A stretch of DNA of 64,000 bases from Silvibacterium acidisoli (GTDB taxonomy: Bacteria > Acidobacteriota > Terriglobia > Terriglobales > Acidobacteriaceae), in assembly GCA_022870745.1 (NCBI GenBank), contig CP085323.1, positions 930,001 to 994,000 of the forward strand, given 5' to 3'. Below the pieces are notes generated by a model. That model was given only the letters and a program-made list of their open reading frames with translations. It searched no databases and was not told where the DNA came from. Of this stretch, positions 999-15,403 are shown in pieces. The position numbers were made by a program, and so were the translations under genes. Numbering within the stretch: position 1 is the stretch's first letter; each line of letters begins with the position of its first letter.

Positions 999-1150
999 CT
1001 TGTCTCGTCTGCCGTGGTCTCGTCTGCCGCCGGACTGCTTTCCTGTTAGCGACTCCGATAGTAGCAGCCATTAATCTCGATTGGAAATAGATTTGCTATT
1101 GAAACATGACAGGTCTTACGATAAGACCCGGATGTAAAGCGAGGGCTCGG
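999..1150. promoter_or_regulatory. Divergent rhaT/rhaI control region with short inverted repeat
   Basis: This spacer separates the two divergent rhamnose genes. It contains an inverted repeat AATAG-ATTTG-CTATT at 1086-1100, a candidate operator for the pathway regulator encoded downstream. A GAGGG Shine-Dalgarno sequence lies 5 nt before the ATG at 1151, favouring that start over the in-frame ATG at 1106, which lacks a ribosome site and would overlap the repeat. The operator role is inference. Confidence 0.4.
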
Positions 1151-2362
1151 ATGAAATACGGGGAACAGCTGCAGAAGGGTGCGAAGGAACGGGTCTGGCG
1201 TGCGCTGGATGCGTTTGCCATCGAGCTTCCGTCTTGGGGATTTGCCAATACCGGGACCCGGTTCGGAAAGTTTCTGCAGGAAGAAGCAGCCTCAACGCTG
1301 GAAGAAAAGTTCGCAGATTCCGCCGAAGTAAAACGGCTAACGGGTGCGGTATCGGCTGTCGCGCTCCATGTGCTGTGGGATATGCCGAATGGCCTGAAGG
1401 ATGTAGAGGCGGTACGAACCCTCGAAAAGAAGCATGGCATCAAGGCCGGGGCCATCAATCCCAACCTCTTCCAGGATCAGTCCTACAAGCTTGGCTCTCT
1501 CTGCAATGCAAACCCGGAGATTCGCCAGCATGCGCTCGATCACCTGCTGCTCTCAATCGAGATCGCGAAGGAGCTTGGCGTGCGCGACACATCCCTCTGG
1601 CTATCCGATGGATCGAGCTATCCGGGAACACAGAACATTCGCAAGCGCATCGACTGGCTTGTTGATGCGCTCAAAACCGCTCACGCAAAGCTCGGACCAG
1701 GCCAGCAACTGCTCGTGGAATACAAACCCTTCGAGCCATACTTCTACCATACGGATATCGCGGACTGGGGCATGGCTCGCGAGCTTTGCCGCGAAGCGGG
1801 ACCGCAGGCGAAGGTACTCGTCGATACAGGCCATCACTACCAGGGACAGAACATTGAGCAGATCGTTGCATGGCTGCTGCGCAGTGGACTGATGGGTGGA
1901 TTCCACTTCAACGATCGCCGTTATGCGGACGACGACCTGACTCTCGGCTCCATCGACCCCTACGCGATCTTCCGTGTCTTTTACGAAGTGCTCAGCGCAG
2001 CCTCCGTGTCCCATGAGCCTGCGAATATTGCATACATGATCGATCAGAGCCACAACATGAAGGGCAAGATGGAGGCAGCCGTGCAAACAGTCGTCACTGC
2101 CCAGGAACTCTTCGCCCGAGCTGCCCTGGTTGACCTGGAGACGCTCGGCGATCTGCAGGATGCCGGCAGGCTTGTGGAAGCGGAAGAACTCTTTCGCGGC
2201 GCATTCTGGACCGACGTTCGCCCATTGGTGGGCGAATGGCGAAAGGCCCACGGGGCCAGCGCCGATCCCCTGCTTTCGCTCCGTGAAGATGGCTACGTCG
2301 AGCATATCCGGAAGGAACGCCGTGCCCGGAACACGGCAGGGGGAGGCGGCAGCTACGCCTGA
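1151..2362 (+). CDS. rhaI: L-rhamnose isomerase (RhaI/Pseudomonas-type)
   Basis: Converts L-rhamnose to L-rhamnulose, the first cytoplasmic step of rhamnose catabolism. The 403-residue product matches the RhaI type (TIM-barrel, xylose-isomerase-like) rather than E. coli RhaA. Expected metal-site segments are visible: VEYKPFEP (Glu near residue 190), VDTGHH (Asp near 225 and adjacent His) and FHFNDRR (His/Asp near 253-255). The start at 1151 is chosen because GAGGG sits 5 nt upstream; a start at 1106 would add 15 residues without a ribosome site. It is the first gene of a rhaI-regulator-aldolase/dehydrogenase-rhaB run on the plus strand, divergent from rhaT. Confidence in function is high from both motifs and context. 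Confidence 0.92.
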   Translation: MKYGEQLQKGAKERVWRALDAFAIELPSWGFANTGTRFGKFLQEEAASTLEEKFADSAEVKRLTGAVSAVALHVLWDMPNGLKDVEAVRTLEKKHGIKAGAINPNLFQDQSYKLGSLCNANPEIRQHALDHLLLSIEIAKELGVRDTSLWLSDGSSYPGTQNIRKRIDWLVDALKTAHAKLGPGQQLLVEYKPFEPYFYHTDIADWGMARELCREAGPQAKVLVDTGHHYQGQNIEQIVAWLLRSGLMGGFHFNDRRYADDDLTLGSIDPYAIFRVFYEVLSAASVSHEPANIAYMIDQSHNMKGKMEAAVQTVVTAQELFARAALVDLETLGDLQDAGRLVEAEELFRGAFWTDVRPLVGEWRKAHGASADPLLSLREDGYVEHIRKERRARNTAGGGGSYA

Positions 2363-2370
2363 CATATTTA

Positions 2371-2382
2371 GCTTTGCAAAGC
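2371..2382. promoter_or_regulatory. Perfect 12-bp palindrome between rhaI and its regulator
   Basis: GCTTTGCAAAGC is a perfect palindrome in the 62-bp gap between rhaI and the regulator gene. There is no T-run after it, so it is more like a protein-binding site than an intrinsic terminator. Possible autoregulatory operator; function is inferred from position only. Confidence 0.3.
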
Positions 2383-2424
2383 GGATCGAGCCAAGATGAT
2401 ACTGGGTAGATACGGAGATCTTCT

Positions 2425-3519
2425 TTGCGAAAGAAAAGCCAGACGCCCCTGTATCTGATCCCGATCCTGTCCAAGGCCCTCGATGTACTTGAACTGATGG
2501 AGAACGAGAGCGGTTCTCTCACGCTCGAAGCGATTCACAAGCGCACCAGGTTTTCAAAAACGACAACCTATCGAGTGCTGAAGACGCTGGTGCATCGCGG
2601 CTATCTGGCACAGTTGGGCGACGGCTCTTACCGGCACATCTCGCGCCAGAAAAAAGTCGTATTCGGTTACGGAAGCCAGAGCAGCACCATGCCCTTTTCC
2701 GATGCAGTGGAACAGAGCCTTCGTACCGCTGCGGTCGAAGCAGGCGTTGAACTGCTCGTGCTCGACAATCACTACAGCGGTACAACAGCGGTTCAGAATG
2801 CGGACGAATTCGCAAAACGAGGCGTCGACCTCGTGATCGAATTCCAGACCGACCAGGCTGCCGCGCCGATCATTGCCGACAAGATCGCTTCTGCTGGGAT
2901 TCCGCTGATTGCCGTGGACATCCCTCACCCCCATGCTACGTTCTTCGGCGTCGATAATTTCCGCTGCGGCAAGGCCGCGGGAGAAATCCTGGCGCGATGC
3001 ATTGAGGAGCGCTGGGACGGACGCGTGGATTGGATCATCGGGCTCGACCTGGCTTTTGCCGGTCCCATGGTGCAGGCACGTGTCACGGGAGCATTTGAAG
3101 CCATCAACAAAGAACTGCCTTCGATCAAGGCCGATCGTTATGTCCGCATCGATGTACAGGGCCTGCGGGAGAACAGTCACACGGCGATGCTGGAGTTCCT
3201 GCGCGAGCATCCGGCGAGCCGTCGCATCGCCATTGTCGCGTCGAACGACGCGAGCGCTCTCGGCGCAATCGATGCCGCTCGTTCCCTCAAACGTGAAAAG
3301 CACTTAATGATCGTGGGCCAGGATGCGATCGAAGAGATGCTCAACGAAATGCGAAAGTCGAGGACGCCGGCGGTTGCAACCATTTCGCACGGGGCGGAGA
3401 ATTACGGGCGGCAGTTGATTCACGTCGGCCTCGAGATTCTAAAAGGGCGGCACGTTCCACCGTACCACTTTGCAGAGCATAAACTCATCACGCAGAAGAT
3501 GATGGCCGAAGAGGATTAA
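2425..3519 (+). CDS. Chimeric transcription regulator: IclR-type winged HTH fused to sugar-binding (PBP/LacI-like) domain
   Basis: Probable rhamnose-responsive regulator. Residues about 8-65 form an IclR-type winged helix-turn-helix (SKALDVLELM, then SKTTTYRVLKTL, then HRGYLAQ). From about residue 85 to 355 it resembles periplasmic-binding-protein/LacI-type sugar sensors: LVLDNHYSGTTAVQNADEF, IPLIAVDIPH, FFGVDNFRCGKAAGEIL, AIVASNDASALGA and MIVGQDAIEEML. A typical IclR effector domain is absent, and there is no signal peptide. TTG start: ACGGAG lies about 7 nt upstream and no ATG fits. Position between rhaI and the aldolase gene implies control of this operon by rhamnose or a catabolite. Domain assignments are read from sequence; ligand is inferred. 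Confidence 0.85.
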   Translation: MRKKSQTPLYLIPILSKALDVLELMENESGSLTLEAIHKRTRFSKTTTYRVLKTLVHRGYLAQLGDGSYRHISRQKKVVFGYGSQSSTMPFSDAVEQSLRTAAVEAGVELLVLDNHYSGTTAVQNADEFAKRGVDLVIEFQTDQAAAPIIADKIASAGIPLIAVDIPHPHATFFGVDNFRCGKAAGEILARCIEERWDGRVDWIIGLDLAFAGPMVQARVTGAFEAINKELPSIKADRYVRIDVQGLRENSHTAMLEFLREHPASRRIAIVASNDASALGAIDAARSLKREKHLMIVGQDAIEEMLNEMRKSRTPAVATISHGAENYGRQLIHVGLEILKGRHVPPYHFAEHKLITQKMMAEED

Positions 3520-3523
3520 TTCC

Positions 3524-3559
3524 GTATTCGAAATACTTGCTCTATCGGTACGCTATAAT
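3524..3559 (+). promoter_or_regulatory. Inverted repeat and -10-like box before rhaD
   Basis: The 87-bp gap before the aldolase gene contains GTATT-CGA-AATAC (3524-3536), a 5-bp inverted repeat, followed by a consensus TATAAT at 3554-3559. A convincing -35 at 17 bp spacing is not seen, which would fit an activated promoter. It suggests that rhaD-rhaB may have their own regulated promoter in addition to read-through from rhaI. Confidence 0.4.
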
Positions 3560-3606
3560 CCCGAACAGGAAATGCGGGCGGCTTCTGCCCCTGGCTGGAG
3601 AATGAA

Positions 3607-5814
3607 ATGTCGCAAGGTAAGAGTTTAAAGTTTCTTGAGAATCGCTGGGACCCGGCGATCGCCGACACTCTGGATGAGCCGGAGCTGCTTCGCTACAGGT
3701 CGAACCTTCTCGGCTCCGACCTGCGCCTGACCAACTTCGGCGGCGGAAACACGAGCTCCAAGCTGACGATGATTGATCCGCTCTCCGGCGAGCCGGTGAA
3801 GGTGCTCTGGGTTAAAGGATCGGGCGGCGACCTGGGCAGCATCAAGCGTGCGGGCTTCGCTACGCTATATCTCGACAAGCTGCTCGCTCTCGAAAAGATT
3901 TACGCAGGTGTTGAACGCGAAGACGAGATGGTTGCGCTGTATCCGGTTTGCACCTTTGGAAACAATCCTGTCGCTGCATCGATCGACACGCCGCTTCACG
4001 CGTACCTTCCCTTCCCGCATGTGGACCATCTTCATCCCGACTGGGGTATTGCACTTGCAGCAGCCGCGAACGGCCGCGAAAAGATGGACGAGTTCAACAA
4101 GGAGTTTGGCCACAAGCTCGCATGGCTGCCGTGGCAGCGCCCCGGATACGAACTCGGCCTGATGCTGCGCCGCGCTGTGAGCGAGAACCCCGGCTGCGAT
4201 GGAGTTGTGCTTGGCGGACACGGGCTTTTCACCTGGGGTGAAACCCAACGGGAGAGCTACGAGAATACTCTGACGGTGATCGATCACCTCGGCCAGTTTC
4301 TCGATGCGCACGCAGAGAATAAAGGCCGCGTCTTCTTTGGTGGATCGCGTGTGGCCTCGCACGCAGAACGCGAGAAGATTGCCAACGCGATCATGCCGAT
4401 CATCCGCGGCGGCGTATCGGCGAAGAAGCGGGTCATCGGCACTTTTTCCGATGCTCCCGATGTACTTGAGTTTGTGAACTCCGCCTCAGCGAGCAAGCTC
4501 TCCCATCTCGGAACCAGTTGCCCCGATCACTTTATTCGGACCAAGATCCGTCCTCTGTTCGTTGAATGGGACGCTGCGACATTGGAATCAGAATTCACTG
4601 GAATTCTTGAGAGGTCGCTGACTACCTATCGCAGTGAATATGCCGACTACTACACGAAACATGCTCTGACAGATTCCCCCGCCATGCGCGATGCCAACCC
4701 GTCGGTTGTGCTCGTCCCTGGTGTGGGTATGTTCAGCTTCGGCAAGAACAAGACCGAGTCGCGCATCACTGGCGAGTTCTATACCAACGCCATTCACGTG
4801 ATGCAGGGCGCGGGCGTGCTTGATTCTGGCCAGTGTCCGGACGTGTTGCCGCAGTCCGGACCGGCGGCTGACACAAGCGCTTTCACCACGCATGAGAACT
4901 ATGTTGCGCTACCGCCCAGCGAAGCCTTCCGCATCGAATACTGGGCTCTTGAGGAAGCAAAGATCCGCCGGCAGCCGCCGGAGAAGGAACTTAGCCGCCA
5001 GGTCGCGCTCATTGTAGGCGGAGGCAGCGGCATCGGCCGCGAAGCTGCCCTGCTTGCAGCAGAACGGGGTGCGCACCTGGTAATTGCCGATCGCGATCTG
5101 AAAGCTGCGGAGGGTGTCGCCGAAGAAGTCAGAAAGATTGCGGGCCGTGAAGCTGCAATTGCAACCGCCATTGATATCTGTGACCGCACGACGATTGTTG
5201 CCGCGCTCAACGCGACGGTAAAGGCCTTTGGCGGTCTCGACATCGTCGTGAATACAGCCGCCCTGTTCCCTTCTTCGCCGACCGGCGTCATCTCCGATGC
5301 CCAGTGGGCGCAGACCTTGCAGGTGAACGTTACGGGTAATTACCTGCTGGCGGATGAAGTTCACGCATTGCTCAAAAAGCAGGGACTTACTGCTAGCCTG
5401 GTGCTCACCAGTTCAGCCAATGCGGTCGTTGCCAAGCGTGGAAGCGAAGCTTACGACGTGAGCAAGGCTGCGGTCAGCCATCTTGTTCGCGAGCTTGCGG
5501 TTGGATACGCGCCCTTGGTGCGCGTGAACGGCGTGAGCCCCGCTACGGTAGTAAAGGGATCCACGATGTTCCCACGCGATCGCGTAAAGGCGTCCCTGGC
5601 GAAATACAAGATCGCCTTCGACGAGAAGGACAGCGACGAAGAGCTGCGCACGAAGCTCGCAAAATTCTACGCGGAGCGCACGCTGACCCATGTGCCGATC
5701 GATCCAAAGGATTGTGCTGAGGCGATTCTCTTTTTAGCCGGGCCGAAGACTCCTGTCACCACAGGGCACATCATCCCCGTTGACGGCGGACTCGTCGAAG
5801 CGCAGTTGCGATGA
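3607..5814 (+). CDS. rhaD: Bifunctional rhamnulose-1-phosphate aldolase / short-chain alcohol dehydrogenase
   Basis: This 735-residue fusion cleaves L-rhamnulose-1-phosphate to dihydroxyacetone phosphate and L-lactaldehyde, then oxidises lactaldehyde. The N-terminal ~450 residues are a class II aldolase/adducin domain (GGGNTSSKLT, HVDHLHPDW, VLGGHGLFTWGE). The C-terminal ~270 residues are a classical SDR: GGGSGIG nucleotide-binding loop near residue 470, a Ser in SSANA, and YDVSK giving the catalytic Tyr/Lys near residue 616. It matches the known RhaD aldolase-dehydrogenase family of rhizobia, Bacillus and other bacteria. Its TGA overlaps the rhaB ATG (ATGA), so translation is probably coupled. 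CTGGAG upstream supports the ATG at 3607. Confidence 0.93.
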   Translation: MSQGKSLKFLENRWDPAIADTLDEPELLRYRSNLLGSDLRLTNFGGGNTSSKLTMIDPLSGEPVKVLWVKGSGGDLGSIKRAGFATLYLDKLLALEKIYAGVEREDEMVALYPVCTFGNNPVAASIDTPLHAYLPFPHVDHLHPDWGIALAAAANGREKMDEFNKEFGHKLAWLPWQRPGYELGLMLRRAVSENPGCDGVVLGGHGLFTWGETQRESYENTLTVIDHLGQFLDAHAENKGRVFFGGSRVASHAEREKIANAIMPIIRGGVSAKKRVIGTFSDAPDVLEFVNSASASKLSHLGTSCPDHFIRTKIRPLFVEWDAATLESEFTGILERSLTTYRSEYADYYTKHALTDSPAMRDANPSVVLVPGVGMFSFGKNKTESRITGEFYTNAIHVMQGAGVLDSGQCPDVLPQSGPAADTSAFTTHENYVALPPSEAFRIEYWALEEAKIRRQPPEKELSRQVALIVGGGSGIGREAALLAAERGAHLVIADRDLKAAEGVAEEVRKIAGREAAIATAIDICDRTTIVAALNATVKAFGGLDIVVNTAALFPSSPTGVISDAQWAQTLQVNVTGNYLLADEVHALLKKQGLTASLVLTSSANAVVAKRGSEAYDVSKAAVSHLVRELAVGYAPLVRVNGVSPATVVKGSTMFPRDRVKASLAKYKIAFDEKDSDEELRTKLAKFYAERTLTHVPIDPKDCAEAILFLAGPKTPVTTGHIIPVDGGLVEAQLR

Positions 5815-7265
5815 GCGACACGCGAGTAAAGGATCGTCGCGCATTAATCGCAGTCGACCTCGGCGCAGAGAGCTGCCGGGTGTCGCTGTTGAAATGCGAT
5901 GGTCCTGAGCTGAAGGCGACGCTCGTACACCGATTCCCAAATGGACCGGTGGAAACAGAGCAAGGCCTGCACTGGCCCATTACTGCAATCGAAGAAGGCG
6001 TCCTAGAAGGCATCCGGCGATGTGCGGCATTGGCTCCCGAGGGGATTCGTTCCATCGCGGTCGATGGCTGGGCAGTCGATTATGTAAGGCTGGCCCCGAA
6101 TGGAGATCTTCTGGACACGCCTTTCTGTTACCGAGACCCGCGCACCATTGCATCGGAACAGCACATTCACGAGTCCATCTCTCCGGCAAAACTCCGTGCT
6201 CTCTCCGCAATTCAGATTCAACGTATCAATACCGCATATCAGCTGGTAGCCGACAGGCTTGCGGACAGACCCGTTCCTCGATGGCTCAATCTGCCTGAGT
6301 ATCTGCTATATCGACTTGGCGGCAGACCAGTTGCAGAAGTGACGAACGCGAGCCACACACAACTGCTGCAACCAGGCGGCACTGCATGGAACGATGAAAC
6401 CTTTGCGTTGCTCAACCTGGATAGAAACTCCGCTCCAGAGCTTGTCCCGTGTGGAACGATCCTGGGCAAACTACAGGGGCCGCTGGCAGATCTGCCCGAG
6501 TTCGGAGACACAGTCCTAATCGCGCCCGCATGCCACGACACCGCTTCAGCCGTTGCCGGCATCCCGTTACAGGATGGCAGTGAAGACTGGGCATATATCA
6601 GTGGAGGAACATGGTCGCTCGTAGGTACCGTTCTCGACGCGCCCGAAAATAGTGCTCAGGCGGCAGCCGGTAATTACACCAACCTGGCGGCGGCAGGAAA
6701 CCGAGTGCTCTTCCACAAGAACGTAAACGGCATGTGGCTGCTCAGGCAATGCATTGAGACGTGGAAGAAACAAGGTGCATCGCTGGCCGATATTCCAGAG
6801 CTGGTTGCGGCAGCAGAGCAGCTCCCGCCGCCTCAATGTCTCTTTGAGGTCGACGAGCCGGAATTGTTGCTGCCCGGCGATATGCCCAGGCGCATCGCAG
6901 AACAGATCACGCGAAATGGGGGATCTCCGCCACCGCTGACTGCGGATGCCGCGCCTCACTTTGCAAATCTGATCTTTCACAGTCTTGCTCATAAGTACGC
7001 TGTCGTCCTTCGCGAGGCCGAAACCATCACTCACCGCAAATTCAAACGAATCTGCACGATTGGCGGAGGCAGCAGAAACAGGTATCTCAATTGCCTGATC
7101 GAATTGGCTACCGGCCTTCCTGTCTGCAGAGGACCGGCAGAATCGTCGACGATTGGCAACTTTGCCGTGCAGCTTGCGACGCTAGAATCAGGCGACACTG
7201 GCGCTGTTGCGATTGCACGCTGGTCGCAAGCCCTTACAGATCATGGCTGCTCGAGTCATTTGTAA
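5811..7265 (+). CDS. rhaB: Rhamnulokinase
   Basis: Phosphorylates L-rhamnulose to rhamnulose-1-phosphate, the substrate of the upstream aldolase. The 484 residues match the usual length (E. coli RhaB 489). FGGY-kinase features are visible: AVDLGAESCRVSLL at the N-terminus (phosphate loop), VDGWAVDYVRL, and the C-terminal ATPase segment IGGGSRNRYLNCLIE followed by ATGLPV. The start overlaps the rhaD stop by 4 nt (ATGA), so the two are translationally coupled. This is the last gene of the rhamnose operon; a short hairpin follows at 7292. Confidence 0.94.
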   Translation: MSDTRVKDRRALIAVDLGAESCRVSLLKCDGPELKATLVHRFPNGPVETEQGLHWPITAIEEGVLEGIRRCAALAPEGIRSIAVDGWAVDYVRLAPNGDLLDTPFCYRDPRTIASEQHIHESISPAKLRALSAIQIQRINTAYQLVADRLADRPVPRWLNLPEYLLYRLGGRPVAEVTNASHTQLLQPGGTAWNDETFALLNLDRNSAPELVPCGTILGKLQGPLADLPEFGDTVLIAPACHDTASAVAGIPLQDGSEDWAYISGGTWSLVGTVLDAPENSAQAAAGNYTNLAAAGNRVLFHKNVNGMWLLRQCIETWKKQGASLADIPELVAAAEQLPPPQCLFEVDEPELLLPGDMPRRIAEQITRNGGSPPPLTADAAPHFANLIFHSLAHKYAVVLREAETITHRKFKRICTIGGGSRNRYLNCLIELATGLPVCRGPAESSTIGNFAVQLATLESGDTGAVAIARWSQALTDHGCSSHL

Positions 7266-7291: not shown

Positions 7292-7307
7292 GCGAATGGG
7301 CATTCGC
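7292..7307. terminator. Short hairpin between convergent rhaB and the czc-operon end
   Basis: GCGAATG-GG-CATTCGC forms a 7-bp inverted repeat between the rhaB stop (plus) and the small membrane-protein stop (minus). It is positioned to serve both strands, but there is no clear T-tract on either side, so intrinsic termination is only a possibility. Confidence 0.35.
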
Positions 7308-7312
7308 CACCT

Positions 7313-7462
7313 TCAACGGCCGGAGTGAGTGAACGCCTGTAGCAGGACCATGATGATCGTCCACGCCAGGAATGCGAGGACAAGCGTCATACCAAGCCAA
7401 AATATGCCTGACTCGAATGACGAATGACTTTTCCTTCGATTGAAGGGTCTATGCCTGTTCAT
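7313..7462 (-). CDS. 49-aa single-helix membrane protein at the 3' end of the czc operon
   Basis: Unrecognised small protein, too short for usual gene calls. ATG at 7462-7460, TGA at 7315-7313. The first 22 residues are basic and polar (MNRHRPFNRRKSHSSF...), followed by one strongly hydrophobic stretch (FWLGMTLVLAFLAWTIIMVLL) and a short polar tail ending HSGR. This is the look of a positive-inside single-pass inner-membrane protein. A purine-rich segment (GAAGGTGGGG) lies upstream of the ATG. It begins 69 nt after the czcC stop, on the same strand, as a fourth gene of the RND operon. Small helices of this kind accompany other membrane complexes (AcrZ, KdpF, CydX); a role in the efflux pump is inference. 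Confidence 0.6.
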   Translation of the reverse strand: MNRHRPFNRRKSHSSFESGIFWLGMTLVLAFLAWTIIMVLLQAFTHSGR

Positions 7463-7531
7463 TTTCTACCCCACCTTCTTCCGTGCAAGGCAGTCAAGCG
7501 AATTTCTGCAAATCAAATGCTCGCGATTTCG

Positions 7532-8842
7532 TCAGGGCGCGACTTCTGTCGCGGTCGCAAAACTCAACTGGTGAATTGCCATCCATGTCTGTGCATACGA
7601 GTTCAGCGCATTCAGGGTTGTTGTGCGGTCATCCTGCAACGCGTTCAGATAGTCGACGAGCGCAATACCGCCGTGCTCGTAAGCGAACTGAGCAATGGAA
7701 AGCACGTCTTTCGCTTCGTCCAGATAATGACCGTTAAATCGGTCGGACATAGTCTTCGCACCGAGATAGCCTGCCCAAGCCTGGGCTACATCGGAATAGA
7801 CCTGGGCACGTGCCGCCATTTCCGAGAAGCGGCTCGCCTGGGCTACATCCTTGGCGGTTTCCTTGTTGCCTTGATTGCGGTCGAAGATACGCAGCGGAAT
7901 GCTCAGATTGAAGCCGGCTGAATTGTATGTGCCGACCCGGTCGTACTCACCCTCGAGAGTTGGGTCCGTTGTTCCATTGGCATATGCCAGTTTCACACCA
8001 GCGTCAGCCACACGTATGGCATCCTGCGAAGCTTTGTAGTCGGGTCGGGCGGCCAGTGCCTTCTGTTCGAAATCCGTCAAGGTGCTGGTCACGGGAGGAG
8101 GCATGAGTTCGCCCGCAATGTCGAAGTTGTCAGCCACACGTTCGAAGCCAATGAGCGTTTGCAGCTGGTAGCTACTCTGCTTCAGATTCAATTCCGCGCT
8201 CGTCTCATCGCTTTCAAATTGCGATAGCTGAAGGTCGAGCCGTTCGTAATCGAGTTTGCCGATGTCGCCTGCGCTGTAGCGTGTCTTGTTGATGTCCAGC
8301 TCATGCCGGAAATCTTTGAGATTGTCCTGCGCCAGCTTCAATGCCGCTTTGGCGAGCAACATGTTTGTAAAGGCCTGCTTCACGGAGAGAATCGTCTGCT
8401 GCTCCTGCAAGGCATACTGGTCACGTGTCTGATCAGTTGTTGAGCGTGCGCTGTCCAGTCTCCAGCGCCTCTTCTCACCGCGTTCGAACAAGCGTGAGAC
8501 CTGGACGCTGTAACTGTAGGGCGATGCGGGGTTGGACGCGGGATTACTGACATCGGTACCGACTAATCCGAGGTTCGGATTTGCCCGGACACCTGCCTGA
8601 ACCTCCTGCGCCTTCACAGAGAGGAGATTTTGTTCAGCCGCGAGAAGGTTCAGATTCTTCGCCTTCGTCAGGCTGATGACTTCTTCGAGCGTCAGAGGAT
8701 GCGTTGGTCCGGCGGGAGCCACGCGTGCAGCAGGTGCGCTGGGTAACGACGATGTTGTCTGTGCGTGCATGAAAGCATTAGCGGACAACATAGCTGCCGC
8801 AACCGACAGAACGCAGACGAGAGGAGCACGACGATTTTGCAT
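7532..8842 (-). CDS. czcC: Outer-membrane efflux channel of the metal RND pump (TolC/CzcC family)
   Basis: Outer-membrane factor completing the tripartite metal efflux pump. The 436-residue protein has a signal peptide ending near MHAQ and then a proline/alanine linker. The TolC-type duplicated domain follows, starting LTLEEVISLTKAKNLNLLAAEQNL, with later RPDYKASQDAIRVADAGVKLA marking the second repeat and long helical coiled segments between. The czcA stop and this ATG share one base (TAATG), so translation is coupled. It is third in a czcB-czcA-czcC order on the minus strand. Family assignment is firm; the metal specificity is not shown by this subunit. Confidence 0.88.
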   Translation of the reverse strand: MQNRRAPLVCVLSVAAAMLSANAFMHAQTTSSLPSAPAARVAPAGPTHPLTLEEVISLTKAKNLNLLAAEQNLLSVKAQEVQAGVRANPNLGLVGTDVSNPASNPASPYSYSVQVSRLFERGEKRRWRLDSARSTTDQTRDQYALQEQQTILSVKQAFTNMLLAKAALKLAQDNLKDFRHELDINKTRYSAGDIGKLDYERLDLQLSQFESDETSAELNLKQSSYQLQTLIGFERVADNFDIAGELMPPPVTSTLTDFEQKALAARPDYKASQDAIRVADAGVKLAYANGTTDPTLEGEYDRVGTYNSAGFNLSIPLRIFDRNQGNKETAKDVAQASRFSEMAARAQVYSDVAQAWAGYLGAKTMSDRFNGHYLDEAKDVLSIAQFAYEHGGIALVDYLNALQDDRTTTLNALNSYAQTWMAIHQLSFATATEVAP

Positions 8843-11800
8843 TAGTTTTCAAACTCCGTCTCAGGATTAGGCAGCACGTCGCCATCGGCCGCGATCCAGA
8901 CATAGAGCGTAGGCAGCAGAAAAACATTGATAGCGAGGGCCGCAATAAGGCCACCTACGATCACGATCGCGAAGGGCCGCTGCGAATCCGACCCGATACC
9001 ATGCGAGGTGGCGGCAGGCAGCAATCCAAGCGTAGCGACCAGCATGGTCATCATGATGGGGCGGAGCCGAAGCACTGCACCCTCCACGGCGGACTCTTCG
9101 ATACTGCGGCCGCGCACGCGAAGCTGATTGATGTATTCGAGCATGATCACACCTGTCTGCACCGAGACGCCGAAGAGCGCGAGAAAACCAACGCCGGACG
9201 AAACGCTGAAGTTAGTGTGTGTAAGCAGCAACGCGAGCATTCCACCCAGCGGCGCCATGGCAACATTACCCATGATGAGCATCGCCCACTTGCCCGACTT
9301 AAACATCGTGTAGAGGATGACGAAGATGAGGATGATCGTGATGGGTAGCACCAGCATCAGTCGCCGCGAAGAGCGCTTCTGGCTCTGGTACTCGCCGGCC
9401 CAGTCGAACTTGTATCCGGGGGGCAGCTTGACCTGCGCATCCACGTGACGAATCGCTTCTTCAACCGTGCTGCCGAGATCGCGGCCACGCACGCTGTACT
9501 TCACGGCAACGTATCGCTGGCCTTCTTCGCGATAGATCTCCTCCGCCCCGTCTTCGGTCTTCACCGTTGTAAGTTGTGCCAGCGAGACGCGTTCTCCAGA
9601 GGGAGACAGCAGGCGAATGTTGTTGATGGCGTCCTGAGTATCACGGTATTGCGGCAGATAACGCGCCACAAGATCGTAGCGAGCCTCCTTCACGAGCACC
9701 TGACTTACTGCATTGCCACCCACTGCCGTCTGAATCGCATCCTGCACGTCGGCTACATTGATGCCGAATCGAGCAGCTGCTTCACGATTCACCGTGTAAT
9801 TAAGGTTCGGCTGACCGATCACGCGGAACAGGCCGAGATCGGCAACGCCCTGCACCTTGCCCATCACATCGACAACCTGGTCTCCGAGCTTCTCAAGTGT
9901 CTTGAGATCATCGCCGTAGATCTTAACGGCAAGCTCTCCTTTTACGCCGCTTACCGCCTCTTCAACGTTGTCTGAAATTGGCTGCGAAAAGTTCCAGATG
10001 ACGCCCGGCATCTTTTCAAGCTCGCGATCGATGGCGGAGATGAGTTCGTCCTTGCTTTGGTGAAAGACCGGACGCCACTCGTTCTTCGGCTTGAGATCGA
10101 CAAAATATTCGGTATTGAAGAAGCCAGTGCTGTCGGTTCCGTCATCGGGACGACCGACCTGGCTCACAACCTGTGTGACCTCAGGGAATGCGGCCATAAT
10201 GTCGCGCGCCTTGTTTGCAACGGCGACGCCCTCGGATGGACCGGTGCTGGGAGCAAGGGTGCCACGCACCCAGATCGCCCCTTCATCGAGGTGAGGCAGA
10301 AACTCCGATCCGATTACCCCGCTGAAGGCGAGGAAGGCCGTCAAGCACAACGCGAGCACTGCACCGCCGACCGTGATGTAGCGGTGCTCGATCGCCCAGG
10401 TGGCCGCACGGCGATAGCGATTCGTGAGCCACGTCATCAGCGGGTTGTGCCACTCTTTCGCTCCCTTCGAGAAGAGGAAGCTCGAGAGCACCGGCGCCAG
10501 CACCATCGAGAAGACGAGAGCGCCAAGCAATGCAAAGGCTACTGTCCAGGCCATAGGCCGAAAGAGACGCCCTTCGACGGCCTGCAGAGTAAAGATGGGA
10601 AGATACGCGGTGATGATGATTCCGATCGCGTAGAAGACAGGCCGCTGCACTTCGTGCGCAGCCTCGCGGATCTGTTCCATCGGGGAGAGATCGCGTTTCC
10701 CGCCATTGCGGCTCAGATGACGAACGATGTTCTCTACCATCACCACTGCGCCATCGACGACCATGCCGAAATCGAGCGCCCCAAGCGAAAGCAGGTTGGC
10801 AGGAATGTGGCGAAGGTCCAGACAGATGGAGGCAAAGAGCAGCGCAAATGGAATGGTGATCGAGACGATTAGCGCGCCACGCACATTGCCCAGGAAGAAG
10901 AAGAGAATGATTACAACGAGGACGATGCCTTCGGTCAGATTGTGAAGCACCGTGTGCGTCGTATAGTGCAGAAGGTCGCTACGATCGAGGAAAGGCACGA
11001 TCTTCACGCCCGGCGGCAGAATGCGATCGTTCAGCTCTTTGACTTTCTCGTGGATTCCCTCGAGAACCTTATCGGAGTCATCGCCCTTCTGCAGCAAAGC
11101 GACGCCTTCCACAACATCGTCATCATCGACGATCTTGCCATCGACCCGATGAATTGCCTTCCCTATTTGCCCGAGACGGATCTTAGGTCCCTGAGCAACA
11201 GTGGCAATGTCTTTCACACGCAGCGCGGTGCCGGATTGCGTTTTGAGAACAATGTTTTCGATATCGGCGACGCTGGTGACCAGGCCGACCTCACGTACAT
11301 TGATCTGCTGCTGGCCCTCTTCGATGAACGCTCCGCCTGCATTTGTGTTGTTGGCGGCCAGCTGCTGCTCAACCTGGCTGATGCTGAGCCCGTAGGAGAT
11401 CAACTTGTCGGGATCGATCCTTACCTGGTACTCGCGCGTCATGCCGCCGAAGCTCGAGACGTCCACAACGCCAGGAACGGACTTCATCTGTTTCTCAAGC
11501 GTCCAGTCTTCGATCGACTTGAGTTCCATGTTGTCGTACTGCGGATTCGTACTTTGGAGCGTGTACCAGTAGATCTGCCCAACGGGGCTCCAGTCGGTTC
11601 CGATTTGCGGCTGCAGATTGGCCGGCAGGTTTACCTGCGTGAGCCGCTCCAGCACCTTTTCACGATTCCAGTCGTTGACCGAGTCGTCGTCGAAGATCAT
11701 CTTGACGTCAGACAGACCGGCCAGCGAAAAGGAACGCAGGTGCTCCATATGGGGAATGCCCGCCATCTGGATCTCGATCGGGATCGTGACCTGCTGCTCC

Positions 11801-11982
11801 ACTTCTTCCGCGGCGCGTCCCGGCCACTGTGTGATCACCTCGACGTAGTTGTTCGCTACATCGGGATAGGCCTCGACGGGCAGGTTATGAAACGAGACGA
11901 TTCCCCAGGCGAAAAGCAGAATCGAAGCGCCGAGCATGAGCCAGCGATTATTGAGAGCGAAGTCGACGAGTCCGCGAATCAT
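8842..11982 (-). CDS. czcA: Heavy-metal efflux RND transporter (CzcA/CusA family)
   Basis: Inner-membrane proton/metal antiporter, the engine of the efflux complex. It is 1046 residues, the usual HME-RND length. The N-terminal helix is followed by the family motif LPVEAYPDV near residue 35. The transmembrane-4 proton-relay segment is LDFGMVVDGAVVMVENIV, with acidic residues at about D404, D410 and E417, closest to Co/Zn/Cd-type CzcA pumps rather than CusA, which has Asn/Met in this segment. GVSVQTGVIMLEYINQLR in the second half is also typical. The ATG overlaps the czcB stop by one base (TAATG), and the czcC ATG overlaps this stop in the same way. Exact metal is not determined. Confidence 0.93.
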   Translation of the reverse strand: MIRGLVDFALNNRWLMLGASILLFAWGIVSFHNLPVEAYPDVANNYVEVITQWPGRAAEEVEQQVTIPIEIQMAGIPHMEHLRSFSLAGLSDVKMIFDDDSVNDWNREKVLERLTQVNLPANLQPQIGTDWSPVGQIYWYTLQSTNPQYDNMELKSIEDWTLEKQMKSVPGVVDVSSFGGMTREYQVRIDPDKLISYGLSISQVEQQLAANNTNAGGAFIEEGQQQINVREVGLVTSVADIENIVLKTQSGTALRVKDIATVAQGPKIRLGQIGKAIHRVDGKIVDDDDVVEGVALLQKGDDSDKVLEGIHEKVKELNDRILPPGVKIVPFLDRSDLLHYTTHTVLHNLTEGIVLVVIILFFFLGNVRGALIVSITIPFALLFASICLDLRHIPANLLSLGALDFGMVVDGAVVMVENIVRHLSRNGGKRDLSPMEQIREAAHEVQRPVFYAIGIIITAYLPIFTLQAVEGRLFRPMAWTVAFALLGALVFSMVLAPVLSSFLFSKGAKEWHNPLMTWLTNRYRRAATWAIEHRYITVGGAVLALCLTAFLAFSGVIGSEFLPHLDEGAIWVRGTLAPSTGPSEGVAVANKARDIMAAFPEVTQVVSQVGRPDDGTDSTGFFNTEYFVDLKPKNEWRPVFHQSKDELISAIDRELEKMPGVIWNFSQPISDNVEEAVSGVKGELAVKIYGDDLKTLEKLGDQVVDVMGKVQGVADLGLFRVIGQPNLNYTVNREAAARFGINVADVQDAIQTAVGGNAVSQVLVKEARYDLVARYLPQYRDTQDAINNIRLLSPSGERVSLAQLTTVKTEDGAEEIYREEGQRYVAVKYSVRGRDLGSTVEEAIRHVDAQVKLPPGYKFDWAGEYQSQKRSSRRLMLVLPITIILIFVILYTMFKSGKWAMLIMGNVAMAPLGGMLALLLTHTNFSVSSGVGFLALFGVSVQTGVIMLEYINQLRVRGRSIEESAVEGAVLRLRPIMMTMLVATLGLLPAATSHGIGSDSQRPFAIVIVGGLIAALAINVFLLPTLYVWIAADGDVLPNPETEFEN

Positions 11983-13121
11983 TACTGCTCCGATGAATTC
12001 TGCAGCTCGAGCGCCCTCGATACCACCTGCTGGCCCGGGTTGAGGCCAGTGGTAATCTCCTGCAGGTTTCCGGGCAGCATCGCTCCGGCCTGTACGCTGA
12101 GACGGCGGAAAGTCCCGTCATTGTTCGGTATGTATACCCAGTCTCTGTCCTGCAGGTGCAGGATCGCGGTTGCGGGAACGACCGTATGCATCTCCGCTCT
12201 TCTGCCATGCAGTGTTGCGGTTGCAAACATGCCGAGGCGCATCAGATTGCCTGGATTTTCCACCTGAATGCGAACTTTTGCGGTACGGATATTCGGGTCC
12301 AGCACGGCGCCTATATCGCCAATCGTCCCGGTCAGCGTTCGATCCGGATAGGCATTGAGGCGAATGTCGGCAGTCTGGCCAATGTGTACAGCGGAGAGAT
12401 CGTTTTCGTAGACATCGCAGATGATCCAGACGTGCGAGAGATCGGCAATGGTGAATGCATTCGGTGATCCGGCGAGCGAAACGCCGGCGGTCGCAGCCTC
12501 CGTCACATTCTGCTGGATGATGAATCCCGATGAGGGCGCATAAACCTTTACCGTTGCGCCCGGATGATCCTTATCGACACCGAGCACACGCAGTTGCTGC
12601 TCGGCTGCTGTCAGGTCTGCCCTGGCGTCGTTTTCACCATCCTCTGCAATCTCAAGCTGGCTCTTTGCGATTGCGCCCTTGTCGTAAAGAATGCGGGCGC
12701 GGTCAAGCTGCGTGTTCGTCAGATGCTCGTCGTTAACCGCTTTCAGATACTGATCATAGGCACCCGAGATGTCCGTGCTCTGCACTTCCATCACCAGCTG
12801 CCCTTTCTTCACGTAATCGCCCAGACGCACGTGCACCGCAATCACGCGTCCGGAAGCAAGCGAAACGACGGGGATCTCCCGCGAGATATCGGGGTTCACT
12901 GTCCCGGTAACATTGAGCGTGGAAGCGGCTTCATGCGATTGCGCTGTTACCAGGGAAAATCGTTCCGGGTGATCGACACGAACGACGCTCACTCCCTGCT
13001 GGTGCTCCACGGTAGCCGGTGGAGGCGCCTCCGCTGCGGGATCGCTAGCCTTCCTGCTGCAACCGATGCCCGTCAGCATCAGCGTCATCGCAATTCCTGT
13101 TGCAACTTTTTTCCTGCTCAC
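11982..13121 (-). CDS. czcB: Periplasmic adaptor (membrane fusion) subunit of the metal RND pump
   Basis: Links the RND pump to the outer-membrane channel. The 379 residues start with a lipoprotein-like signal (TLMLTGIGC, Cys21), so it is probably anchored to the inner membrane. The adaptor order is visible: barrel-sandwich half (SGRVIAVHVRLGDYVKKGQLVMEV), a helical hairpin (about residues 125-175), the second lipoyl half (VYAPSSGFIIQQNV), and the beta-barrel (IADLSHVWIICDVYENDLSAVHIG). It is the first gene of the czcBAC plus small-protein operon and is divergent from a two-component system, a likely regulator. Confidence 0.9.
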   Translation of the reverse strand: MSRKKVATGIAMTLMLTGIGCSRKASDPAAEAPPPATVEHQQGVSVVRVDHPERFSLVTAQSHEAASTLNVTGTVNPDISREIPVVSLASGRVIAVHVRLGDYVKKGQLVMEVQSTDISGAYDQYLKAVNDEHLTNTQLDRARILYDKGAIAKSQLEIAEDGENDARADLTAAEQQLRVLGVDKDHPGATVKVYAPSSGFIIQQNVTEAATAGVSLAGSPNAFTIADLSHVWIICDVYENDLSAVHIGQTADIRLNAYPDRTLTGTIGDIGAVLDPNIRTAKVRIQVENPGNLMRLGMFATATLHGRRAEMHTVVPATAILHLQDRDWVYIPNNDGTFRRLSVQAGAMLPGNLQEITTGLNPGQQVVSRALELQNSSEQ

Positions 13122-13374: not shown

Positions 13375-14799
13375 ATGGCTACACCCCGTTTTCAAGGCGA
13401 CCGGCACAAAGTTCTCTTCATGGTCGCCGCTCTGATCGCAGTCATTGCGTTTGCTGACTGGCAGATCAATCGCGAAGTTCCGGTCGGCTTTCTGTACCTG
13501 CTCCCCATTGTTCTTGCGAGCCGCGTGCTCACGAGACTGCAAACTGCCCTGCTGGGGATCGGATGTACCTTTCTCGCTGAAACCTTCGATGGCTACCAGT
13601 GGACATTGCTCTCCGGTGCGCCCCGTGATCTGCTTTACGCAACAGCCTTCACCGGGATAGGCCTCTTCGCATATGAGATCAGCGCTGGCCGCCGCGCCGC
13701 CGTCTCTCACGTATCGCAACTGGAGAATGAAATCCGAGCCAGGCGCGAGGTGGAAGAACAATTGGAGATACTGGTCGAGAGCAGCCCGGTCGCCATCATC
13801 ACGGTGGATGAGCAGGGTTCGGTGCTACTGGCCAACGATGCCGCGCATCGGTTGTTCGAACTCCAGCAGGGCAATCTTATCGGACACACAATTCGTCCCT
13901 TCATGCCTTCGCTGGTCAATATCCCCGATCTGCGCACCGGGCAGCAATCCTTCCGCACCGTCATGCAATGCAAGGGACGGCGGCAGAACGGCGAGATCTT
14001 TATTGCAGACGTATGGTTCTCCACTTATAGAACGAACGCAGGCCCAAGGCTGGCCGCGATGATTGTCGATACTTCAGAGGATCTGCGCGACCGCGAAGAA
14101 GCCGGCCTCCACCAACTACTCACAGGATCGCGCATACTCATCGGCGCAGTCAGCCACGAGATTCGCAACATCTGCGGAGCAATCGCCCTGGTGCACGAGA
14201 ATCTTTCGCGTAGCGGCATCCTCGCGCAGAATCAGGATTTCGAGGCGCTCGGCACGCTTGTGATCGCACTGGAACGGATTGCGGCCATGGAGTTGAGGCA
14301 GACAAAGAATGAGGCCACGACCGTAGAGTTGCTTTCGTTTCTCGATGAACTGCGTATCGTGATCGGGCCGTCGCTGCGCGAAGACGACATCGAAGCTGAT
14401 TGGATCATTCCCTCCGCATTGCCCGTCGTATGGGCAGATCCGCACAGCCTGATGCAGGTCTTCCTGAATTTGACAAAGAACGCCCAGCGGGCCCTGGCAA
14501 ACAGACGCGACGCTCGTATCCAGGTCGTCGCGGTGGCAGAACCGCAACGCGTGCTGATAACCATCAGCGACAACGGGGATGGTGTCAGCAATCCTGAACT
14601 CCTCTTCAAACCGTTTCAGGCAAAGGCTACCGCTGCCGGAATGGGCTTATATCTCTCACGTGCCCTGATGCGTTCCTTCGGCGGAGATCTCCGCTATCTT
14701 CCCGGCAACGGCGCAAGCTTCACTGTCGAGATTGCGTCTATAGTTGATACAGATGAAAGAAGCCATGGACGAGAAGGTCAGGCTGCTGCTGGTCGATGA
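13375..14799 (+). CDS. PAS-containing sensor histidine kinase
   Basis: Sensor half of a two-component pair. The 474 residues have membrane helices in the first ~100 residues (FMVAALIAVIAFADW, GFLYLLPIVLAS and two more), a short coiled linker, and a PAS domain at about residues 130-240 (LVESSPVAIITVDEQGSVLLAND). The kinase core follows: H-box AVSHEIRNICGAI with His261, N-box NLTKNAQRAL, G1 ISDNGDG and G2 GMGLYLSRAL. A strong GGGAGGG precedes the ATG. The 3' end overlaps the response-regulator gene. It is divergent from czcB, so regulation of the efflux operon is plausible but unproven. Confidence 0.88.
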   Translation: MATPRFQGDRHKVLFMVAALIAVIAFADWQINREVPVGFLYLLPIVLASRVLTRLQTALLGIGCTFLAETFDGYQWTLLSGAPRDLLYATAFTGIGLFAYEISAGRRAAVSHVSQLENEIRARREVEEQLEILVESSPVAIITVDEQGSVLLANDAAHRLFELQQGNLIGHTIRPFMPSLVNIPDLRTGQQSFRTVMQCKGRRQNGEIFIADVWFSTYRTNAGPRLAAMIVDTSEDLRDREEAGLHQLLTGSRILIGAVSHEIRNICGAIALVHENLSRSGILAQNQDFEALGTLVIALERIAAMELRQTKNEATTVELLSFLDELRIVIGPSLREDDIEADWIIPSALPVVWADPHSLMQVFLNLTKNAQRALANRRDARIQVVAVAEPQRVLITISDNGDGVSNPELLFKPFQAKATAAGMGLYLSRALMRSFGGDLRYLPGNGASFTVEIASIVDTDERSHGREGQAAAGR

Positions 14800-15403
14800 T
14801 CACACTTTATTCCGCGAGGGACTTGCTCGGCTTCTCGAAGCGGAATACGGTCTGGAATTGATTGGAAGCTGCGCCTCTCCTGAAGAGGCTTTCACGATTC
14901 TGGAGGCCAGAGGGGTAGACGTTGTACTTCTCGACTTCGATCTGGGAACCAAAAACGGTCTTCACTTCTTCCGTGAGTTTGAGATGCGAAAGTATCCGGG
15001 CCGCATTCTCATGGTCACGGCCGGCATGCGCGATGCCGATACGGTAAGTGCCCTGAAGAATGGCGTCGCCGGCATCTTTCTGAAACATAACCCTCCTGCA
15101 GACCTCATCACGGCCATACGGCGTGTCGCTCGAGGAGAAACATGGCTGGATTCAAACACCATGAGGGCCCTGGTAGCCGGCAGCGCGGAAGAGGAACGAT
15201 CCCGCAAAGCCGACTCGCTCAATGACCGGGAGCAGGCAGTTCTGAAGGGCGTATTTGAGGGCCTCACAAACAAGGAAATCGGAGCGAGGCTGAATATCTC
15301 CGAGAGCTACGTGAAGGCGTTGCTGCAACAGTTATTCGAAAAGACAGGCGTGAGAACCAGAAGCCAACTGGTGCGAGTCGCCCTGGAACGGAATCTGCAG
15401 TAG
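14765..15403 (+). CDS. NarL/FixJ-type response regulator
   Basis: DNA-binding partner of the upstream kinase. The receiver domain has the acidic pair in LLLVDDHTLF, phospho-acceptor Asp57 in VVLLDFDLG, and the conserved Lys in FLKHN. A LuxR-type HTH fills the last ~65 residues (LNDREQAVLKGVFEGLTNKEIGARL). The start is placed at 14765, giving the usual short lead before the receiver domain; in-frame ATGs at 14744 and 14753 would add up to seven residues. The coding region overlaps the kinase gene by about 35 nt, so co-translation is expected. Confidence 0.88.
   Translation: MDEKVRLLLVDDHTLFREGLARLLEAEYGLELIGSCASPEEAFTILEARGVDVVLLDFDLGTKNGLHFFREFEMRKYPGRILMVTAGMRDADTVSALKNGVAGIFLKHNPPADLITAIRRVARGETWLDSNTMRALVAGSAEEERSRKADSLNDREQAVLKGVFEGLTNKEIGARLNISESYVKALLQQLFEKTGVRTRSQLVRVALERNLQ

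What the first reader, a model, noticed from the sequence alone, without database searches (positions are those of the whole stretch)
7313..7462. Unmarked 49-aa membrane protein closing the czcBAC operon
Seen: a clean ATG-to-TGA frame on the czc strand, 69 nt after czcC, with a basic N-terminus and one hydrophobic helix. Known: short single-helix subunits bind RND and other membrane complexes (AcrZ with AcrB). Inference: possible new accessory subunit of a metal RND pump.
Basis: partly seen in the sequence, partly recalled or inferred. Interest (0 to 1): 0.7.

Follow-up and report, generated by a model that had tools for sequence, protein, structure and literature searches.

The report
Small helix protein beside metal pump
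A tiny, previously unnamed one-helix membrane protein encoded at the end of a heavy-metal pump operon is a real gene with relatives beside the same kind of pump in other acidobacteria, so it is probably a helper of the pump, though this has not been shown by experiment.

Summary
The 49-codon frame at 7313-7462 (minus strand) is real. It starts 69 nt after czcC and encodes a basic N-terminus plus one hydrophobic helix. I found no family model for it. It belongs to a family of 17 intact and 2 damaged members, all in one acidobacterial family. Of the 17, 14 follow czcA directly (one inferred across a contig break), 2 sit divergently upstream of czcC, and the window's own follows czcC. One damaged copy lies beside the pump's kinase/regulator genes in a genome where no CzcA of this kind was found. 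Amino-acid constraint is weak and seen mainly in aggregate.

The gene belongs mainly to czcC-czcB-czcA operons. Only 16 of 106 compared CzcA rows carry it, so it is optional.

Best explanation: a small partner helix that binds CzcA and tunes or stabilises the pump, working like AcrZ on AcrB but with no sequence match to it. Gene and linkage are shown; binding and function are inferred.

The parts
7313..7462 (-). Small single-helix membrane protein gene (49 aa plus stop)
   Evidence: homologues; AlphaFold2 of the single sequence gives helix 15-48, mean pLDDT 81.7
7463..7531 (-). 69-nt spacer between czcC and the small gene, with a purine-rich SD-like stretch before the ATG; no promoter-like site found
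7292..7307 (-). Terminator-like hairpin directly after the small gene
   Evidence: 1 found, 0.5 expected; the wider fold is not unusual, z 0.06
7532..8842 (-). czcC, outer-membrane channel (OEP)
8842..11982 (-). czcA, heavy-metal RND permease (CusA/CzcA family TIGR00914, above cutoff)
11982..13121 (-). czcB, periplasmic adaptor
13375..14799 (+). PAS-domain histidine kinase, divergent from the czc operon
   Evidence: homologues within the fetched stretch of part of the other czc loci
14744..15403 (+). LuxR-type response regulator

Best explanation
The gene encodes a small inner-membrane protein (basic N-terminus probably in the cytoplasm, one helix, very short tail) made together with the CzcBAC metal efflux pump. 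Most likely its helix packs against the membrane part of CzcA and stabilises it or tunes its transport, in the manner of AcrZ on AcrB. Shown here: a real gene family, tight linkage to czcA, and one case of a broken copy in a genome without this kind of pump. Inferred: co-transcription, topology, binding to CzcA, and effect on transport. It is dispensable, because most related pumps lack it.
For: Single-sequence searches found three clear homologues, each directly behind a czcA gene. A profile of these four matched 24 further genomes of 398 at E<=0.01. Of the 13 below E 1e-4, 9 lie directly behind czcA (one of them, G747, frame-broken), 2 divergently upstream of czcC, 1 (G521) at a contig end in a genome whose czcA also stops at a contig end, and 1 (G498) is a broken copy beside the czc-type kinase/regulator pair. 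All 17 intact members have a CzcA of this kind in the genome. G498 has 13 RND matches, but its best is only 49-50% identical (E 1.9e-21), below the cut that 265 of 398 genomes passed. Amino-acid differences over 6 pairs sum to 148 against 176 if neutral, 0 of 5000 simulations as low. The N-side flank is more positive in 17 of 17.
Against: Only 16 of 106 CzcA rows carry the gene. Of the window's four nearest CzcA relatives, three (G006, G001, G484) visibly lack it after czcC; the fourth (G008) runs off the contig, and no copy was found elsewhere in that genome. Constraint is weak in single pairs (3 of 6 below p 0.05), and the pairs were picked and aligned as proteins, which favours the result. 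Identity to the window copy is only 23-39%. Of the 11 weaker profile hits (E 4.8e-4 to 0.0094) 10 are not at such a czc locus; one of these, G644, lies near a distant RND operon. No interaction evidence. CzcA F553 goes with the gene (16 of 16 with, 46 of 90 without) but came from 1527 tests and is not significant on independent pairs (median p 0.125).
Confidence: 0.55

Rival explanations
1. The peptide is a membrane-bound regulator: it signals pump presence or envelope metal stress to the divergent PAS histidine kinase, rather than acting on CzcA.
For: A related kinase gene lies in the fetched stretch of 10 of 16 rows with the small gene, against 19 of 48 B-A-C and 15 of 42 other rows without it (stretches are of unequal reach); the broken copy in G498 lies beside the kinase pair.
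Against: The gene follows czcA rather than the kinase; several loci have the kinase pair but no small gene (for example L150, L166, L183, L184).
Confidence: 0.15
2. It is a membrane insertion or assembly factor for the pump, acting transiently during biogenesis and not in the finished complex.
For: Position as last gene of the operon; kept in operons with quite different CzcC proteins (window CzcC is 31-38% identical to those of the acidobacterial C-B-A operons).
Against: Nothing specific; it is absent from most related pumps.
Confidence: 0.18
3. It is a small hydrophobic stress or toxin-like peptide, or another membrane peptide, that merely hitch-hikes with the operon.
For: Size, basic end and one helix would suit such a peptide; patchy distribution.
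Against: All 17 intact copies found are at czc loci (one inferred across a contig break), mostly in one position; a search of plasmid records with the G271 protein found nothing. Toxicity was not tested.
Confidence: 0.06
4. Chance open frame without a product.
For: Not seen after czcC in any of 48 other B-A-C rows, 5 of which cannot be judged.
Against: Protein-level homologues in eight genus groups, the window's included, at the same kind of pump, aggregate amino-acid constraint, low background of such frames (2 of 90).
Confidence: 0.03

Closest known systems
AcrZ (E. coli, 49 aa, binds AcrB)
   Same: Length, single helix, association with an RND pump; AcrZ is co-regulated with acrAB and sits in a membrane groove of AcrB (PMC7267776, passages seen).
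   Different: No AcrZ family among the Pfam or NCBIfam matches; pump is of the metal type; encoded in the pump operon itself; patchy; binding untested.
KdpF and other small transporter partners (SgrT, the small protein that promotes MgtA)
   Same: Short proteins that modulate a transporter (named in PMC7267776, passages).
   Different: Different transporters; no such family matched here.
CusF
   Same: Extra, nonessential protein of a heavy-metal RND system (PMC8277102, passage).
   Different: CusF is a metal-ion chaperone (periplasmic, from recall); this is a membrane helix, and no His, Cys or Met is among the invariant or nearly invariant columns.

Membership tests
AcrZ family | Sequence match to the known AcrZ family | tested here: not met
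   Neither the window protein nor any of 13 members hit it; that AcrZ has its own model in these libraries is recalled, not shown by a call
AcrZ family | About 50 aa with a single membrane helix | tested here: met
   49 aa, one helix 15-48, hydrophobic segment 23-41
AcrZ family | Binds the RND permease and changes its activity | not testable with these tools
   No complex prediction or experiment available
czc-linked small-helix family described here | Located at a czcCBA or czcBAC locus | tested here: met
   17 of 17 intact members, one of them inferred across a contig break
czc-linked small-helix family described here | Loosely conserved helix pattern (W-x-G-x-x-L ... Q/E-A) | tested here: met
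   Window residues W22, G24, L27, Q42, A43; G24 and A43 invariant in 13 members; of the later-added members G742 departs at both and G335 at A43
czc-linked small-helix family described here | Placed directly after czcA | tested here: not met
   In the window czcC lies between czcA and the gene; two others (G625, G532) are divergently upstream of czcC
CzcCBA heavy-metal RND efflux system (host operon) | CusA/CzcA-family permease with adaptor and outer-membrane channel | tested here: met
   TIGR00914 950.6 bits against cutoff 701.45; OEP and HlyD_D23 above cutoff

The most novel reading that the evidence does not exclude
Acidobacteria evolved, independently of AcrZ, a dedicated one-helix allosteric subunit for heavy-metal RND pumps. 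It is encoded in the pump operon, survived a swap of the outer-membrane channel gene, and decays when the pump is lost.
Probability: 0.35. Interest if true: 0.65.

Novelty: new member of a known kind. Interest (0 to 1): 0.5.

Why it matters
Among the papers I saw, AcrZ is the only one-helix partner described for an RND pump, and I found none described for the metal-exporting branch (searches; open-licence library only). A natural set of related pumps with and without the helix makes the question 'what does a small helix do to an RND pump' directly testable.

Tried and rejected
Relic of an RND helix: the window peptide resembles a membrane helix of some other RND proteins in four weak hits. With the family profile, none of the six best matches shown among 1098 long frames was in a frame of RND length (they are 359-590 codons; what they encode was not identified, and several of those loci had been fetched because they matched weakly), so I dropped this.

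Homologues outside family f1: a class-wide profile search (250 genomes) gave one marginal hit outside f1 (G946, E 8.8e-4), not followed up. A single-sequence phylum-wide search (396 genomes) gave one weak hit outside f1 (G109, E 0.007), which lies across a 473-codon frame of the other strand and was judged unrelated. Viral contigs (window protein) and plasmids (G271 protein) gave none. Among the 23 named loci the profile found no small gene, but three of these loci end within czcA or czcC or within about 115 nt of the pump genes.

Remnants in operons lacking the gene: best 6.6 bits, equal to the best of the reverse-strand control. That profile was built from the members themselves, so their own scores there are circular.

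CzcA residues linked to the gene: only F553 was followed; a post hoc lead.

Solved structures: nothing below E 0.77. The Pfam and NCBIfam best matches of single members (down to E 0.0013) fall in different families, at most 2 members in any, and were taken as chance.

Rows dropped before the 106-row count (121 loci in): eight skipped as second copies (L061, L062, L063, L067, L076, L080 share all 200-base pieces tested with L135, L178, L177, L182, L132, L147; L092 and L096 are parts of the L188 and L211 stretches); L094 and L097 (no czcA in the stretch); L082 (too distant); L169 (internal stop); L186, L194 (fragments); L197 (interrupted). L206 was counted as lacking the gene although its contig ends there and the gene is on another contig of that genome (G521). 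The 106 rows include three that are not acidobacterial by title (L077, L079, L081).

Full report
Observation. The frame at 7313-7462 (minus) is present as described: ATG, 49 residues, TGA, 69 nt after czcC. czcB, czcA and czcC are adjacent on the same strand; the permease scores 950.6 bits to the CusA/CzcA family model, cutoff 701.45. The window CzcA carries DFGMVVDGAVVMVEN; from recall, not from a call, that motif type marks pumps for divalent metals. The window lies in a one-contig genome of 5.36 Mb that gave one match to the peptide. Its genus group contains G006, whose czc stretch is shared with the Silvibacterium bohemicum record, so I infer that genus.

It is a gene family. The peptide alone found one clear homologue in 61 genomes of a relatives search (G025, E 4e-7) and two more in 396 genomes of the phylum (G271, G107). 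All three lie directly after a czcA gene. A profile of these four, run on 398 genomes of the taxonomic family, matched 28 at E<=0.01, the four seeds included. Of the other 24, the 13 best are tied to czc: 9 directly after czcA (one frame-broken), 2 divergently upstream of czcC, 1 at a contig end in a genome whose czcA also stops at a contig end, 1 broken copy next to the czc-type kinase pair. Among the 11 weakest only G742 lies behind such a czcA; of the other 10, G644 lies near a distant RND operon. G335 was recognised later. In total there are 17 intact members in eight genus codes of family f1, plus two damaged ones (G747 after czcA; G498 without this kind of pump). Genus-wide profile searches around G107, G610, G625 and G524 (62, 10, 12 and 4 genomes) added no further clear member.

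Where it sits. There are two operon orders: B-A-C (the window's) and C-B-A. Identity of CzcC to the window's is 53-82% in the B-A-C rows apart from four at 31-35%, and 31-38% in C-B-A rows apart from two at 22 and 25% (two non-acidobacterial records are in this set); CzcA stays at 66-90% in all but three rows at 41-42%. In 106 CzcA rows (49 labelled B-A-C, 40 C-B-A, 17 unassigned) 16 have the gene: the window alone among B-A-C, 12 C-B-A, 3 unassigned, one of these frame-broken. On a FastTree CzcA tree the gene occurs in both large clades and needs at least 10 changes. The window falls in a 100-support set with four other B-A-C rows: three visibly lack the gene after czcC; in the fourth (G008) the contig ends within czcC, with no copy found elsewhere in that genome. 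The simplest account, inferred, is an old czcA-linked gene lost many times, with a different czcC placed between czcA and the gene in the ancestry of the window's operon. Transfer into this operon is not excluded.

Control. Looking without the profile for any short, strongly hydrophobic frame within 1 kb of the czc genes and outside long frames, 14 of 18 frames found were this family; only 2 of 90 rows without the gene had one. A search for remnants gave nothing above the reverse-strand control (6.6 bits in both).

Link to the pump. The divergent histidine kinase and response regulator of the window (13375-15403) have relatives beside part of the other czc operons: a kinase match over 40% identity in 10 of 16 rows with the small gene (the window's own included), 19 of 48 B-A-C and 15 of 42 other rows without it; stretches are of unequal reach. 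In G498 the kinase pair and a frame-broken small gene remain, with no czc gene in the 9 kb fetched. That genome (100% complete by its listing) has 13 RND matches, the best only 49-50% identical at E 1.9e-21, so other RND pumps remain but none of this kind was found. One case suggests, no more, that the gene is not kept without its pump.

Selection. Amino-acid differences across six pairs sum to 148 against 176 in neutral simulation, 0 of 5000 as low; single pairs give p 0.0024 to 0.29, three of six under 0.05. The pairs were picked and aligned as proteins, which leans towards this result. Nei-Gojobori dN is below dS in all 11 pairs printed (for example 0.16 against 0.30), but the script printed only pairs with low amino-acid divergence plus two named ones.

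Anatomy. The N-side flank is more positive than the C-side in 17 of 17 members, some of them entered without a sure start codon, so by the positive-inside rule (recalled) the N-terminus is cytoplasmic. AlphaFold2 on the single sequence gives one helix, 15-48, mean pLDDT 81.7, pTM 0.45. G24 and A43 are invariant in the 13-member alignment; of later-added members G742 departs at both and G335 at A43.

Function. No Pfam or NCBIfam model hits the window protein at E<=1, and no solved structure is near. The closest working likeness is AcrZ, also 49 residues, which forms a helix on the membrane part of AcrB and modulates it (PMC7267776; passages seen). I propose that the protein is a small partner of CzcA (0.55). 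Rivals are an assembly factor (0.18), a membrane signal to the kinase (0.15), a hitch-hiking peptide (0.06) and a chance frame (0.03). CzcA F553, placed by eye near one end of a membrane helix, is present in 16 of 16 rows with the gene and 46 of 90 without, but it came from 1527 tests and is not significant on independent pairs.

Literature. Searches showed no report of a small membrane partner of a metal RND pump. I saw listings and abstract starts, plus term passages of PMC7267776, PMC10903887 and PMC8277102 (only the first 300,000 characters of PMC8277102 are held). One listed abstract (PMC13095208) reports a lipoprotein, YbjP, on TolC, another kind of pump accessory. Most subscription papers are not in that library.

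Noticed in passing
window 7532-8842 and loci L084-L211: B-A-C and C-B-A czc operons share CzcA but mostly have clearly different CzcC proteins, pointing to replacement of the outer-membrane channel gene.
   Followed up: partly
window 13375-15403: PAS histidine kinase plus LuxR-type regulator divergent from czcB, with relatives beside part of the other acidobacterial czc operons.
   Followed up: partly
L094 4880-5010: Broken small gene next to the kinase pair in a genome (G498) where no CzcA of this kind was found.
   Followed up: yes
L188 and L211: Small gene on the far side of czcC and divergent from it, with a kinase/regulator pair beyond czcA: a differently arranged czc locus.
   Followed up: partly
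L093 1986-2165: A second short hydrophobic frame (59 aa) directly after the small gene, no match to the family profile.
   Followed up: no
window 1106-7265: Plus-strand sugar-catabolism gene cluster (FGGY kinase confirmed; rhamnose pathway guessed from recall) converging on the czc operon.
   Followed up: no
L062 10455-11309: Transposase-like frames directly after czcC in this related operon (judged by eye).
   Followed up: no
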